Source of the DNA: Propionibacteriaceae bacterium
GTDB taxonomy: Bacteria; Actinomycetota; Actinomycetes; Propionibacteriales; Propionibacteriaceae
Length of the DNA: 60,840 nucleotides
Reading direction: 5' to 3'
NCBI GenBank assembly: GCA_030538315.1
Contig: JAUNUF010000008.1
Location: forward strand, 1-60,840
The position numbers and the translations under genes were made by a program. The stretch's first letter is position 1; the number at the start of each line of letters is the position of its first letter. The notes under the pieces were generated by a model. The model searched no databases, was not told the DNA's origin, and saw only the letters and a program-made list of their open reading frames with translations. Shown piece after piece: positions 52,575 to 58,662 of the stretch.

Positions 52575-52994
52575 ATGCCCGCTGCAGACGTGAGCGTCAC
52601 GATCGACGGAACGCGCATCCACGACATTTCCTCCTTCTACGCGGAACTGAACCGGGTCTTCATGCAGGGGGTCGAGTGGCAGCTGGGCGAAAGTCTCGAT
52701 GCCCTGAACGATCTGCTCCACGGCGGCTACGGTGCGCTGGCCGACGCTGACGAGGCGACGGTCGTGTGGATCGACATGGAGCGCAATCGCGAGGCCCTGG
52801 GTGTTGACGCGACGCGAGCCTGGCTCGAGGCGAAGCTCGGCAATCCCGGCTTCGATCAGCAGGGAGTTCGAGCGCAGCTGGCGGAGCTTGAGGAGGGCGG
52901 TGGACCCACATACTTCGACATCATCCTCGACATCTTCGCCTCTCACCCCAACATCACACTCGTCGCGGCGGGCGTACCGGAGGAAACGTCCTAG
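52575..52994 (+). CDS. Barstar-family protein (orphan)
   Basis: Protein of 139 residues. TIDGTRIHDISSFYAELNRVFMQGVEWQLGESLDALNDLLHGGYGAL is the barstar core; the two aspartates in LDALND match the barnase-contacting D35/D39 of Bacillus barstar. It has an unusual insertion before the C-terminal YFDIILDIF strand-helix. No barnase-like ribonuclease is nearby. A close paralogue forms the N-terminal part of the fusion at 54644-55591. Confidence 0.85.
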   Translation: MPAADVSVTIDGTRIHDISSFYAELNRVFMQGVEWQLGESLDALNDLLHGGYGALADADEATVVWIDMERNREALGVDATRAWLEAKLGNPGFDQQGVRAQLAELEEGGGPTYFDIILDIFASHPNITLVAAGVPEETS

Positions 52995-54176: not shown

Positions 54177-54647
54177 ATGGCTCATGAGATCGACTTCGTG
54201 AACGTCTCGACGGCGGGGCTGGAGTCTTCACCACACGCTGAGGCCCTCGCCGGCCTCCGGGCAAACGAGGCGCGCTACTTCAAGAACAAGTACGACCACG
54301 TGTTCACCACAGTCCCAGCGGCCGAGGCACCCGACGTCGTGGCCTGGGTCGAGCGCCTCCTCGCGGAGGAACGCAGCCTGGTGGTCTCTTCGCCGCCCCT
54401 CGAGGTGAGCGTGGCAGATGTCGACGGCATCGACTGGATCCACGTGTTCTACGAGTCCGGTCTCGGCCTCAATGTGCTCTACACGCGCGAGGACAAGGGC
54501 AAGCGAGCCGTCGGGTTCAAGTTGTCTGACGGCATGGATCTCCCCGAGGAACTCAGCTCGTTCAAGTGGGCGCGGCAGAAGTCGAAGCTGGCGGGCACGA
54601 TTCGCGGCTCCTATTTCGTGATCAAGGGCGAGCACCCCCGGTCGTGA
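54177..54647 (+). CDS. Hypothetical protein coupled to the barstar-ART gene
   Basis: Soluble protein of 156 residues (MAHEIDFVNVSTAG). Contains YFKNKYDHVFTTVPAAEAPDVVAWVERLLAEE and ESGLGLNVLYTREDKGKRAVGFKL, a mixed alpha-beta composition with no family I recognise. Its TGA overlaps the GTG of the next gene, so both proteins come from one mRNA with coupled translation. It may be a partner, target mimic or inhibitor of the fusion protein; that is inference from the overlap. Confidence 0.7.
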   Translation: MAHEIDFVNVSTAGLESSPHAEALAGLRANEARYFKNKYDHVFTTVPAAEAPDVVAWVERLLAEERSLVVSSPPLEVSVADVDGIDWIHVFYESGLGLNVLYTREDKGKRAVGFKLSDGMDLPEELSSFKWARQKSKLAGTIRGSYFVIKGEHPRS

Positions 54648-55591
54648 CCCCGTCTGATGCGGGCCAGAAGTCCGAGGCGAAGCCGACTTTCACGATCGAC
54701 GGGCGGCGGATCCACGACATCTCCTCCTTCTACGCCGAGCTGAACCGGGTCTTCATGCAGGACGTGGGCTGGCGGTTGGGCGCGAGTCTGGACGCGCTCA
54801 ACGACCTGCTGCATGGCGGGTACGGCGCCCTCCACGGGGTGGATGAAGCCGAGATCGACTGGCTTGCTCTTGAGGAGACGCGTCAGGCACTCGGCCTGTC
54901 AGCCACCCGGGCGTGGCTTCGCGCCAAGCTGGGCCACGGGTCGTTTAGCCAAGCCGCCGTCGAGGAACAACTCGCGGAGCTCGAAGCCGGCTGGGGCCCA
55001 ACGTACTTCGACCTGGTGTTGGAGGTGTTCGGCGATCATCCGCAGTGGAGGATCAACCCGGTGCCCGCCGAGGAGGACGCGTTCGGTCAGCACGTGCGTA
55101 CGGGCTGCGGTGAGGCTCGCGCCCTGGCCGACCGCATGAGCGACGGTGAGATCAACGCCGTCTTGCCGCTGATCCGAAGGCTGTGGATCGAGACCGAGGC
55201 GCCGTCGGCCTGCTCGGATGCATGGACGGAGATCTGGAGTGAGGTTGGACGCGCGCCAAATCCTGCGCTGGTGATGCGGGCGGGCGACAGACGCAAACTC
55301 GCGGCGCTGGGACCGCGGGTGCAAGTCTTCCGCGGCGCCCTGCAGGGCAACGAGAGGGGCTGGTCGTGGACGCTGGACCGAGCCGTCGCGGAGGATTTCG
55401 GGCGGCGCTACGACGACGAAGGGAGCAGCATCGGAGACGGCGTGCTGTGCACCACGGAGGTCCCGCGAGACGCCATCCTCGCGCTGTTCTCTGAAGGCGA
55501 CGAGACCGAGGTGATCCTCAACCCAGCCGAGTTGACTTGGGGGGATGTGTCCATCGAGCCGCTTGGGGACCAAAGTTATCCACAGCTTTGA
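54644..55591 (+). CDS. Barstar domain fused to a probable ADP-ribosyltransferase domain
   Basis: Protein of 315 residues starting at a GTG that overlaps the previous stop. Residues about 17-140 are barstar-like, nearly matching the orphan barstar at 52575 (FYAELNRVFMQ, LDALNDLLHGGYG). After a linker, residues about 205-315 read like an R-S-E ADP-ribosyltransferase: R230 in VFRGALQG, an aromatic-S-x-T strand W240-S241-W-T243 followed by DRAVAEDF, and an ExE pair E287/E289 in DETEVILNP. If active it would transfer ADP-ribose from NAD to a protein, nucleic acid or small molecule; the barstar part could bind a ribonuclease or serve as immunity. No signal peptide. Confidence 0.7.
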   Translation: MTPSDAGQKSEAKPTFTIDGRRIHDISSFYAELNRVFMQDVGWRLGASLDALNDLLHGGYGALHGVDEAEIDWLALEETRQALGLSATRAWLRAKLGHGSFSQAAVEEQLAELEAGWGPTYFDLVLEVFGDHPQWRINPVPAEEDAFGQHVRTGCGEARALADRMSDGEINAVLPLIRRLWIETEAPSACSDAWTEIWSEVGRAPNPALVMRAGDRRKLAALGPRVQVFRGALQGNERGWSWTLDRAVAEDFGRRYDDEGSSIGDGVLCTTEVPRDAILALFSEGDETEVILNPAELTWGDVSIEPLGDQSYPQL

Positions 55592-55714: not shown

Positions 55715-55948
55715 GTGAGTACGCAGATTGCCGTCCGCTTACCTGATGACATGGTGGCCTTCCTGGATTCAGCAGTGGCATCCGGCGCGGCAAGGAGTCG
55801 CGCCGATCTGGTCGCGCGGGCACTTGAGCGGGAGATGCGCCGCCAGGCGGCAGAAGCCGATGTGGCAATCCTCCGCACCAAGGGATCTGACGACGATCTG
55901 GACGCACTGACCACTTGGTCCGCCACCCGTGCAGCGTTGGAGGATTAG
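55715..55948 (+). CDS. mazE: Ribbon-helix-helix antitoxin (MazE-type)
   Basis: Antitoxin of 77 residues with a GTG start and AGGATG upstream. N-terminal RHH DNA-binding segment (TQIAVRLPDDMVAFLDSAVASGAARSRADLVARALEREMRR) and an acidic C-terminal tail (DDDLDALTTWSATRAALED) of the kind that occupies the toxin site. Three nt before the toxin gene. Confidence 0.88.
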   Translation: MSTQIAVRLPDDMVAFLDSAVASGAARSRADLVARALEREMRRQAAEADVAILRTKGSDDDLDALTTWSATRAALED

Positions 55949-55951
55949 TCC

Positions 55952-56266
55952 GTGCGCGAGATCCGCATCGCCCACCTCGACAAGTCCAGACCCGTCTTGG
56001 TGCTGACCCGCGAACTGGCACGGCCGGCCATGTCGAAGGTGACGGTCGCGCCCATCACATCAACGATCCGGGGGCTGTCGAGCGAGGTCGCGCTCGGTCC
56101 GCGGAACGGCCTGGACCACGAATCCGTGGCCTCTCTGGACAGCGTACTGACGATCCCCTCTGATCGGCTGGGCCAGACCATCGGTTTCCTGACAGGCGCC
56201 CAAGAAGCCGACTTGGCCCGGGCAATCATCCTCGCCTACGACCTCGACATCCCACTGCTCGAGTGA
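55952..56266 (+). CDS. mazF: MazF/PemK-type mRNA interferase toxin
   Basis: Toxin of 104 residues. REIRIAHLDKSRPVLVLTRE and MSKVTVAPITSTIRGLSSEVALG are the standard PemK/MazF beta-barrel blocks, with the catalytic Arg in the ITSTIRG loop and Thr/Ser nearby. It should cut mRNA at a short motif unless bound by MazE. Overlaps nothing; convergent with the deaminase-ASCH gene 9 nt away. Confidence 0.92.
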   Translation: MREIRIAHLDKSRPVLVLTRELARPAMSKVTVAPITSTIRGLSSEVALGPRNGLDHESVASLDSVLTIPSDRLGQTIGFLTGAQEADLARAIILAYDLDIPLLE

Positions 56267-57600: not shown

Positions 57601-58068
57601 TCAGAGCGGCTTCACCATGAATAGACAAGGCGACCCTTCACCCCACAGGTCCGTCTCTTCCAGCGGCAGGAAGCCGAACTGCTCATAGAAGTGCCGCGTT
57701 CTCGCATACCCCTCGTCTGGATGCGACGGTCCCAACGTCTTGACTTCCAGCAGTCGGACTGCGTTATCCCGCGCGTCAGCCTCGATGGCCCTCAGCATGG
57801 CCGTCCCGACGCCAGTACCATGCGCAGCTCGATCCACCACGGTCAGATAGATCTCGCACACGTGAGGAAAGTGCCGATCCACCAACGTGACTCCGCGAAC
57901 GACGCCCCATGCGTCCCGAACCGTCCAGGTCTCCTTCTCGAGGGCCGCCCCCACATACTCGGCGTTGGCAGCTTCAAGCCCAAACCACTCCGGGACGGTC
58001 CCGAGGAGTCGCGCAACATCCTCCGGGACAGGTTGGTCCCGCGCGGCGAGCCATGTGGACGGTGTCAT
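57601..58068 (-). CDS. GNAT acetyltransferase in the higBA unit
   Basis: Acetyltransferase of 155 residues: EIYLTVVDRAAHGTGVGTAMLRAIEADARDN is the acetyl-CoA loop (motif A) and YARTRHFYEQFGFLPLEE motif B. Its ATG overlaps the higA stop by ATGA, so it is the third gene of the higB-higA mRNA. GNAT toxins with antitoxins exist (acetylating aminoacyl-tRNA), but those pair with RHH antitoxins; here it may simply be cargo. Confidence 0.85.
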   Translation of the reverse strand: MTPSTWLAARDQPVPEDVARLLGTVPEWFGLEAANAEYVGAALEKETWTVRDAWGVVRGVTLVDRHFPHVCEIYLTVVDRAAHGTGVGTAMLRAIEADARDNAVRLLEVKTLGPSHPDEGYARTRHFYEQFGFLPLEETDLWGEGSPCLFMVKPL

Positions 58069-58379
58069 GCGGTCTGGAGCGGTTGGATGGCATCGAGAGA
58101 GTCACCCAAGGCGTCCATCTCGACTTCCAGGTCATAGTGCGACTGGAGATTGATCCAGAACTGCGGGTCCATCCCGAAGTAGCGCCCCAACCGCAGCGCG
58201 GTGTCGGCAGAGATTCGACGCTTGCCGTGCACGATCTCATTGATGCGACGCGGTGGGACGCCGATCGCCACAGCAAGCTTGTTCTGGGTAATCCCGAACC
58301 CGTTGATGAAGTCCTCCATGAGGATCTCTCCAGGGTGCACGGGAGGCCACTTCTCAGTGGTAATCAGTGAGTTCGACAT
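58065..58379 (-). CDS. higA: HigA-type antitoxin
   Basis: XRE-family DNA-binding antitoxin of 104 residues from the ATG at 58379. HPGEILMEDFINGFGITQNKLAVAIGVPPRRINEIVHGKRRISADTALRLGRYFGMDPQFWINLQSHYDLE is the standard HigA core. Follows and overlaps higB by 26 nt, and is coupled to the acetyltransferase gene. Confidence 0.95.
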   Translation of the reverse strand: MSNSLITTEKWPPVHPGEILMEDFINGFGITQNKLAVAIGVPPRRINEIVHGKRRISADTALRLGRYFGMDPQFWINLQSHYDLEVEMDALGDSLDAIQPLQTA

Positions 58380-58635
58380 CTTCAGCACCTCCTTCAGTCC
58401 AGACGAAACAGATTCGCCACTGGTCGTTGACGCGGATGCTGTACTGCCCAGAACGATCGCCCTTGAGAGCCTCCAACCTGTTCCCAGGTGGCACTCTGAG
58501 TGAGTCGAGATAGCGGGCAGCATGGAGCTGCGTCAGCTTACGGATCGTCGCCTTCTGCACTCGCGGATCGATCGACGGCACCTTCTCGCGATGCCATAAT
58601 CGCTCGGTCGCTTTGTTCGCGAAGGATCGGATCAC
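58354..58635 (-). CDS. higB: HigB-type toxin (RelE/ParE superfamily)
   Basis: Toxin of 93 residues starting at a GTG (58635), the usual family length; the 27-nt-longer TTG start is less likely. IRSFANKATERLWHREKVPSIDP, RKLTQLHAARYLDSLRVPPGNRLEALKGDRSGQYSIRVNDQWRICFVW and the final VELTDYH are typical. It cuts ribosome-bound mRNA. Toxin-before-antitoxin order is normal for HigBA. Confidence 0.94.
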   Translation of the reverse strand: MIRSFANKATERLWHREKVPSIDPRVQKATIRKLTQLHAARYLDSLRVPPGNRLEALKGDRSGQYSIRVNDQWRICFVWTEGGAEDVELTDYH

Positions 58636-58662
58636 GCCACCCAGTATACCGTGACGCGTCAA

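What the first reader, a model, noticed from the sequence alone, without database searches (positions are those of the whole stretch)
54644..55591. Barstar domain fused to a putative ADP-ribosyltransferase
Sequence: N-terminal barstar-like core and C-terminal R230 / S241-x-T243 / E287-x-E289 pattern in the right order and spacing for the R-S-E ART fold. Knowledge: ART toxins and effectors use R-S-ExE to bind NAD; barstar inhibits ribonucleases. Inference: a single chain carrying both an inhibitor fold and an ART effector could be a conflict-system protein in which RNase binding by barstar controls the ART. I know of no described system with this layout.
Basis: partly seen in the sequence, partly recalled or inferred. 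Interest (0 to 1): 0.78.

Follow-up and report, generated by a model that had tools for sequence, protein, structure and literature searches.

The report
Barstar fused to predicted ADP-ribosyltransferase
This bacterial gene joins a ribonuclease-inhibitor-type binding domain to what looks like an ADP-ribosylating enzyme of a little-studied phage and plasmid family, so it may be an enzyme aimed or switched by a captured partner protein, but no activity has been shown.

Summary
Window 54644-55591 is one 315-aa gene. Residues ~13-142 are a divergent barstar domain (PF01337, 22.5-24.2 bits, cut-off 23.4) with the DxxxD signature. Residues ~143-315 belong to phrog_4776 (E 5e-17), a phage/plasmid family of unknown function without a significant Pfam, NCBIfam or PDB match. 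Family profiles score against two ART families (T4 ModA/ModB, Alt) above every shuffled control, aligned at the catalytic R, but below the known Mod-Alt pair and without reaching E-x-E. Structure prediction failed and was switched off, so the ART fold is supported, not shown. The fusion is real and selected: a 70% identical fused orthologue (dN/dS 0.22) lies on a short contig assigned to another genus, behind the same upstream gene; the ART half stands alone elsewhere. Best reading: an R-S-E-class ADP-ribosyltransferase effector coupled to a barstar docking or sensing domain. That barstar controls the ART is untested. Nine literature searches showed no such layout. New variant of a known kind.

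The parts
54644..55591 (+). Fused gene, 315 aa: barstar domain plus predicted R-S-E-class ADP-ribosyltransferase domain
   Evidence: fused orthologue in G888
54680..55069 (+). Barstar domain (residues 13-142), same subfamily as the stand-alone copy at 52575
   Evidence: PF01337 22.5 bits and 24.2 bits; 63% identical to the stand-alone copy
54791..54805 (+). DxxxD signature of barstar immunity proteins (D50-A-L-N-D54)
   Evidence: both D in P0001, P0002, the fused orthologue and two plasmid barstars; motif named in PMC3482391 (passage)
55070..55588 (+). Predicted ART domain (residues 143-315), phrog_4776 family
   Evidence: a stand-alone relative in G926 matches residues 137-256
55331..55333 (+). 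R230, predicted NAD-binding arginine of the R-S-E triad
   Evidence: R in 51 of 53 rows with letters
55364..55372 (+). S241-W-T243, predicted S-x-T of the triad
   Evidence: S in 53 of 53 rows with letters
55502..55510 (+). E287-T-E289, predicted catalytic E-x-E
   Evidence: both E in 52 of 52 rows with letters
54177..54647 (+). Upstream gene P0003 (156 aa, unknown function), overlapping the fusion start by 4 bases; same order, 46 bases apart, in G888
52575..52994 (+). Stand-alone barstar paralogue P0002 (139 aa)
   Evidence: PF01337 31.7 bits; 63% identity to the fused domain

Best explanation
The gene encodes a two-domain conflict-type effector. The C-terminal half is most likely an R-S-E-class mono-ADP-ribosyltransferase: R230 would hold NAD, S241-x-T243 would shape the pocket, and E287-x-E289 would do catalysis and target choice. 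A glutamate rather than a glutamine in the first position fits an arginine target, by analogy only. It belongs to a family that phages and conjugative elements carry as accessory genes, probably to modify host components. The N-terminal half is a barstar domain whose likely job is protein docking, onto a barnase/BECR-type RNase or something that resembles one; binding would bring the ART to its target or switch it on. Supported here: both domain assignments by sequence, a true fusion, purifying selection on both halves, mobile-element context of some relatives. Inferred: the ART fold and catalysis, RNase binding, and any link between binding and activity.
For: phrog_4776 match E 5e-17; all 38 members of A10, P0001 included, match that family. 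Triad conserved in phages, an actinobacterial plasmid, Clostridia and the window's own bacterial family. hhalign score 27.9 against the T4 ModA/ModB profile, above 200 of 200 column-shuffled controls (best 20.3); the longer family alignment A7 gives 26.9. Score 25.7 against an Alt profile, above 100 of 100 shuffled (best 19.9). Both align at the LPxxxTxYRG stretch with the R. A crude propensity profile puts R230 and S241 in strands and a strand straight after E289, roughly as PMC7827354 describes for R-S-E ARTs (passages). Fused orthologue in G888, 70% identical; dN/dS 0.156 (barstar), 0.284 (ART), 0.224 (all). In the three of eight Clostridial loci whose neighbours I scanned, ArdA antirestriction genes (L031, L035) or a MobL relaxase (L033) lie within about 1.5 kb. 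In three mycobacteriophages the relative lies next to tRNA genes; one viral-contig copy is inside an open frame of at least 1,897 aa.
Against: No structure model. No significant Pfam, NCBIfam or PDB-sequence match for the ART family (best E 0.036, 0.017 and 0.26). hhalign probabilities are low (14.6%, 8.0%, 6.1%); the Alt alignment is only 15 columns and neither alignment reaches E-x-E; the known Mod-Alt pair scores higher (33.8); unrelated P0003 profiles reach 19.7 against this family and 22.3 against Mod. Against single Alt the score is 19.8, barely over 100 shuffles (best 19.4), where Mod gets 22.7. In one search E287-E289 come out as helix and a strand-like stretch at 174-182 precedes R230. 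The profile also gave chance hits (E 5e-5, 1e-4) in two large enzymes with an FRG...SWT stretch, one a GH92 by Pfam. P0001 lacks the near-invariant R of the family's GRxExE and an aromatic third residue in the ARTT loop. The barstar is divergent: a four-member profile of its subfamily finds no solved barstar and none of the PF01337 proteins in 30 loci of relatives. No PF00545 RNase in the own genome. G888 is 87% complete with 6% contamination and its contig is 4,253 bases, so its genus is uncertain.
Confidence: 0.6

Rival explanations
1. Covalent immunity: the barstar half captures an incoming barnase/BECR-type RNase toxin and the ART half ADP-ribosylates it or its surroundings. The protein would be an enzymatically armed immunity protein rather than a self-directed effector.
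For: The DxxxD signature is kept and, in the one orthologue pair available, the barstar half is more constrained than the ART half, dN/dS 0.156 against 0.284; no PF00545 RNase in the own genome, which suits defence against a foreign one; PMC3482391 ties Imm-Barstar to BECR-fold RNase toxins (passages).
Against: ART relatives without barstar are the rule (33 relatives scanned with Pfam, none with barstar; G926), so the ART has targets of its own. No RNase partner was identified.
Confidence: 0.2
2. In-cis antitoxin: the barstar half is a fused inhibitor that keeps a toxic ART silent until it is removed or pulled away.
For: Inhibitor-type fold in front of a predicted toxin-like enzyme; type II toxin-antitoxin genes lie close by, PemK/MazF-like at 55952 and HigB-like at 58354.
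Against: Barstar is known as an RNase inhibitor. A profile of this barstar subfamily found no barstar gene near any ART relative in the 74 loci held, apart from the window's own two and the loci fetched for barstar itself. Fusing a toxin to its own inhibitor gives no obvious release step.
Confidence: 0.15
3. Toxin-antitoxin or immunity pair with the upstream gene: P0003 counters the barstar-ART, the pair moving as a cassette.
For: P0003 overlaps the fusion start by 4 bases; the order is kept in G888 (46 bases apart), where P0003 is 88% identical although the two are only 66-73% and 69-73% identical to six other relatives, congeners included.
Against: P0003 homologues in six other relatives stand without any barstar-ART, so P0003 has a life of its own. 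It has no recognised family. Contamination of the G888 assembly could also explain the 88%.
Confidence: 0.2
4. The C-terminal domain is not an ADP-ribosyltransferase. The conserved R, SWT and ExE serve another fold or a non-enzymatic role.
For: No significant curated family match; weak hhalign probabilities that stop before E-x-E; chance R...SWT hits in a GH92-type enzyme; two family members have Q at the R position.
Against: The order of the triad matches T4 Mod and Alt, and the A-x-x-F after S-x-[ST] matches Mod. Profile scores exceed all 300 column-shuffled controls.
Confidence: 0.15

Closest known systems
phrog_4776 (unnamed family, cluster-L mycobacteriophages and others)
   Same: Homologous over residues 172-297, E 5.1e-17; same R, SWT and ExE
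   Different: Phage members aligned have their own ~110-aa N-terminal region (HPLV...HERPYR...WTDSENIW) and no barstar; function unknown in that library
T4 ModA/ModB and Alt ADP-ribosyltransferases (R-S-E clade)
   Same: Order and type of catalytic residues, R...S-x-[ST]...E-x-E, in Mod also A-x-x-F; phage origin
   Different: Only distantly similar (hhalign 27.9 and 25.7, probabilities 14.6% and 6.1%); no barstar; Alt and Mod are annotated as acting on host RNA polymerase and other proteins, targets here unknown
Barstar / Imm-Barstar immunity proteins (PF01337)
   Same: Barstar match and DxxxD
   Different: About 130-aa divergent subfamily, weak match to PF01337, no sequence match to solved barstars, fused to an enzyme-like domain
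Polyvalent proteins and polymorphic toxin ARTs (Tox-ART-RSE)
   Same: ART domains combined with other domains in conflict proteins (PMC5512222 and PMC3482391, passages only)
   Different: None of their marker domains was found by Pfam in P0001; the word barstar has 0 occurrences in PMC5512222

Membership tests
Barstar (PF01337) | Score over the curated cut-off of 23.4 bits | tested here: inconclusive
   22.5 bits as a 315-aa protein, 24.2 in the genome search, fused orthologue 23.0, paralogue P0002 31.7
Barstar (PF01337) | DxxxD signature | tested here: met
   SLDALNDLL; both D kept in the five barstars aligned
Barstar (PF01337) | Sequence similarity to a solved barstar | tested here: not met
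   Profile of four subfamily members finds no barstar in PDB at E 10; the Pfam match is the only link
Barstar (PF01337) | Binds and inhibits a barnase-type RNase | not testable with these tools
   No PF00545 RNase in the own genome
R-S-E-class ADP-ribosyltransferase | Conserved R, S-x-[ST] and [EQ]-x-E in that order | tested here: met
   51 of 53, 53 of 53 and 52 of 52 rows with letters
R-S-E-class ADP-ribosyltransferase | Profile similarity to a proven member | tested here: inconclusive
   Above all shuffled controls against Mod and Alt, but low probability, below the known pair, not reaching E-x-E
R-S-E-class ADP-ribosyltransferase | ART fold with R on strand 1, S on strand 2, E on strand 5 | tested here: inconclusive
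   Crude propensity profile agrees for R and S, puts E287-E289 just before a strand; no structure model
R-S-E-class ADP-ribosyltransferase | Aromatic residue in the third position of the ARTT loop | tested here: not met
   Third position is E284; PMC7827354 says that SdeA and SidE also lack it (passages)
R-S-E-class ADP-ribosyltransferase | NAD-dependent transfer | not testable with these tools
   No assay
phrog_4776 | Significant profile match | tested here: met
   E 5.1e-17; 38 of 38 members of A10, P0001 included, match
Toxin-antitoxin pair with P0003 | Strict co-occurrence of both genes | tested here: not met
   P0003 in 7 of 96 genomes, own included; the other six show no fusion

The most novel reading that the evidence does not exclude
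A guard-type bacterial effector in which a barstar domain senses a foreign or stress-released ribonuclease, or an RNase mimic, and thereby triggers or aims an ADP-ribosyltransferase domesticated from a phage/conjugative-element family. This would be a new sensor-effector wiring and the first assigned function for that phage family.
Probability: 0.25. Interest if true: 0.82.

Novelty: new variant of a known kind. Interest (0 to 1): 0.6.

Why it matters
If the ART call holds, an unnamed phage/plasmid protein family (phrog_4776, found here in dozens of phage records and contigs, near anti-restriction or relaxase genes in gut Clostridia, and in the window's own bacterial family) gains a predicted activity that one assay can test. 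The fused form makes a fold known as an RNase inhibitor a possible targeting or sensing module for an ADP-ribosyltransferase, a wiring seen in none of the nine literature searches. It is a small self-contained protein on which to ask whether an immunity-type fold can act as a sensor.

Tried and rejected
Assembly or frame artefact: rejected, because codon-position composition is continuous and a fused orthologue with dN/dS 0.22 exists. Fusion unique to one genome: rejected after the search of 198 family genomes; the earlier searches of 146 relatives and 396 phylum genomes had not shown it, apparently because G888 was not drawn. Recent in-place duplication of the neighbouring barstar: unlikely, because the two fused barstars are closer to each other (75%) than either is to P0002 (61-62%). 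In-house barnase partner: none by PF00545. Barstar relatives in viral contigs: none confirmed. ART profile over ORFs of 30 barstar loci (L092-L121): no hit at E 0.01. Island signs: no tRNA in the window; G+C 0.67 in the gene, with a mild dip to 0.60 around 57-59 kb; promoter and terminator scans near chance. Hits G067 and G043 were chance matches in large enzymes: L127 is GH92 by Pfam, L128 is judged by its likeness to L127. PDB-sequence searches of the ART family gave nothing useful. hhalign with single Alt gave only a 13-column hit at the R, so a seven-member Alt profile was made.

Full report
What is there. Window 54644-55591 (+) is a single 315-codon frame starting at GTG. Base composition by codon position is of the same kind on both sides of the domain border and like that of neighbouring genes. 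The frame starts inside the last codons of an upstream gene, P0003 (54177-54647), with a 4-base overlap.

Barstar half. Pfam finds barstar at residues 15-83: 22.5 bits as a protein and 24.2 bits in the six-frame search, against a cut-off of 23.4. A stand-alone copy, P0002, lies at 52575-52994, is 63% identical and scores 31.7 bits. Plasmid relatives annotated 'barstar family protein' in Spirosoma (48.5%) and Sphingobium (42.9%) belong to the same subfamily. The DxxxD signature that PMC3482391 gives for Imm-Barstar (passage) is kept. These two are the only barstars found in the genome at E 0.01. The subfamily is divergent: its four-member profile finds no solved barstar and, at E 10, none among the ORFs of 30 PF01337 loci from relatives, while it finds P0001 and P0002 strongly.

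ART half. Residues 172-297 match phrog_4776, E 5.1e-17, function unknown. tblastn of residues 145-315 finds 64 phage records, 63 of them mycobacteriophages. Scans brought 11 and then 39 viral loci, overlapping, and 8 genome loci, all Clostridia going by the organism titles (class recalled). After removing identical sequences, 54 of 70 ORFs remained. Among rows with letters, R230 is R in 51 of 53 (Q in L044 and L061), S241 is S in 53 of 53, position 243 is T in 49 and S in 4, and E287 and E289 are E in 52 of 52 each. A following A-x-x-F is fixed in 53 of 53. The pattern, source of 27 of the 54 rows, did not include these residues.

Is it an ART? PMC7827354 (passages) places R, S and E of the R-S-E class on strands 1, 2 and 5, with an E/Q-x-E loop. 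A crude propensity profile of A10 puts R230 in a strand (226-231), S241 in a short strand, a helix after it, two further strands and a strand at 290-293 just behind E289; but E287-E289 themselves come out as helix and a strand-like stretch at 174-182 precedes R230. This is weak evidence. Profile comparison was calibrated. A10 (38 rows) against T4 ModA/ModB relatives (A9): score 27.9, P 0.0018, probability 14.6%; A7 against A9: 26.9, 8.0%; 200 column-shuffled controls reach at most 20.3 and the reversed A9 10.9. A10 against seven Alt proteins: 25.7, 6.1%, over 15 columns, with 100 shuffled controls at most 19.9; the known pair Mod-Alt: 33.8; unrelated controls: 13.7 (barstar) and 19.7 (P0003 family), and for Mod 12.4 and 22.3. 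Against single Alt the family scores 19.8, shuffles at most 19.4, Mod 22.7. Both family alignments fall on the catalytic R stretch; the Mod one also covers the S; neither reaches E-x-E. I read this as good but not conclusive support. Structure prediction was accepted, interrupted and then withdrawn. Against: no significant Pfam, NCBIfam or PDB match, no aromatic residue at ARTT position 3, loss in P0001 of the family's R in GRxExE, and two chance profile hits in large enzymes, one a GH92 by Pfam.

The fusion is real and selected. A profile search of 198 genomes of the family returned matches in 6, own genome included, of which two (G067, G043) are the chance hits. G888, placed in another genus, carries the same fusion: 70% identical, dN/dS 0.156 for the barstar part, 0.284 for the ART part and 0.224 overall (Nei-Gojobori). 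Its contig is only 4,253 bases and the assembly is 87% complete with 6% contamination, so the genus may be wrong; the selection result does not depend on it. The fused barstars are 75% identical to each other and 61-62% to P0002. In G926 the ART is found without barstar and matches P0001 from residue 137; G082 holds another form without barstar; the own genome has a second ART copy (G000:C10, E 0.0015 with P0001). So the border at about residue 140 is a joint between modules. A sample of 391 genomes of the order added no fusion. Pfam finds no barstar in 33 phage and Clostridial relatives, and the barstar profile finds none near the ART relatives in the loci held, apart from the window's own.

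Neighbourhood. In G888 the gene before the fusion is a P0003 orthologue, 88% identical to the window's, 46 bases upstream; the two are 66-73% and 69-73% identical to six other P0003 relatives, including members of their own genera. That suggests that P0003 and the fusion moved together, unless contamination explains it; P0003 also occurs without the fusion in those six genomes. Around the window gene lie a PemK/MazF-like toxin gene (55952) and HTH and HigB-like genes (58065-58662). In the three Clostridial loci scanned, of eight, ArdA (L031, L035) or a MobL relaxase (L033) lies within about 1.5 kb. In the three mycobacteriophages looked at the relative lies next to tRNA genes, and one viral-contig copy is part of an open frame of at least 1,897 aa with pentapeptide repeats. 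This looks like the setting of accessory conflict genes in mobile elements, in line with the role of ARTs in phages and polyvalent proteins (PMC9503650, PMC5512222; passages).

Mechanism. Most likely: an ADP-ribosyltransferase effector from the mobile-element pool, put under the aim or control of a barstar docking domain. Shown: the domains by sequence, the fusion, the selection on both halves. Inferred: fold, NAD use, target type, RNase binding, coupling. In the one pair available the barstar half is under tighter constraint than the ART half, which suggests that its binding surface still matters. No PF00545 RNase is in the genome, so a foreign RNase, a BECR-fold RNase outside PF00545 or another partner must be considered. 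Rivals are covalent immunity against RNase toxins, an in-cis antitoxin, a pair with P0003, and a non-ART fold.

Known or new. Searches for barstar with ADP-ribosyltransferase (4 papers), with abortive infection (5), with antiphage or effector domain, with domain-fusion terms, and for ADP-ribosyl terms with mycobacteriophages, polyvalent proteins, toxin-antitoxin and the R-S-E clade were seen as listings; of four papers I saw passages (PMC3482391 is held only in its first 300,000 characters). None showed a barstar-ART protein or work on phrog_4776 as an ART. The library holds open-licence papers only and the longer result lists were cut. I class it as a new variant of a known kind: known folds, new combination, with a family not assigned to ARTs in the libraries searched.

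Noticed in passing
G000:C10:70223-70699 (L003, L016): A second, stand-alone ART-family copy of about 150 aa in the same genome, with R, SWT and E-x-E kept.
   Followed up: partly
L061:1-5691: An open frame of at least 1,897 aa on a viral contig with pentapeptide repeats, two HExxH stretches and the ART-family domain at about residues 1038-1227; the R position is Q.
   Followed up: partly
L031, L033, L035: Clostridial ART-family copies near ArdA genes (L031, L035) or a MobL relaxase (L033), as in leading regions of conjugative elements.
   Followed up: partly
window 55715-56266: Small frame (MazE-like by eye only; no Pfam match) followed by a PemK/MazF-like toxin gene, directly downstream of the fusion.
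   Followed up: partly
window 58065-58662: HTH (HigA-like) and HigB-like genes, a second likely toxin-antitoxin pair close by.
   Followed up: partly
L044:2926-3756 and L061: Two ART-family members with Q in place of the catalytic R; possibly inactive or altered.
   Followed up: no
L127, L128: Large enzymes (L127 a GH92 by Pfam) carrying an FRG...SWTLD stretch by chance; a warning against trusting the R...SWT motif alone.
   Followed up: yes
window 54177-54647: P0003, a family of unknown function with a conserved C-terminus (KLAGTIRG...KGEH), in 7 of 96 genomes searched, own included.
   Followed up: partly
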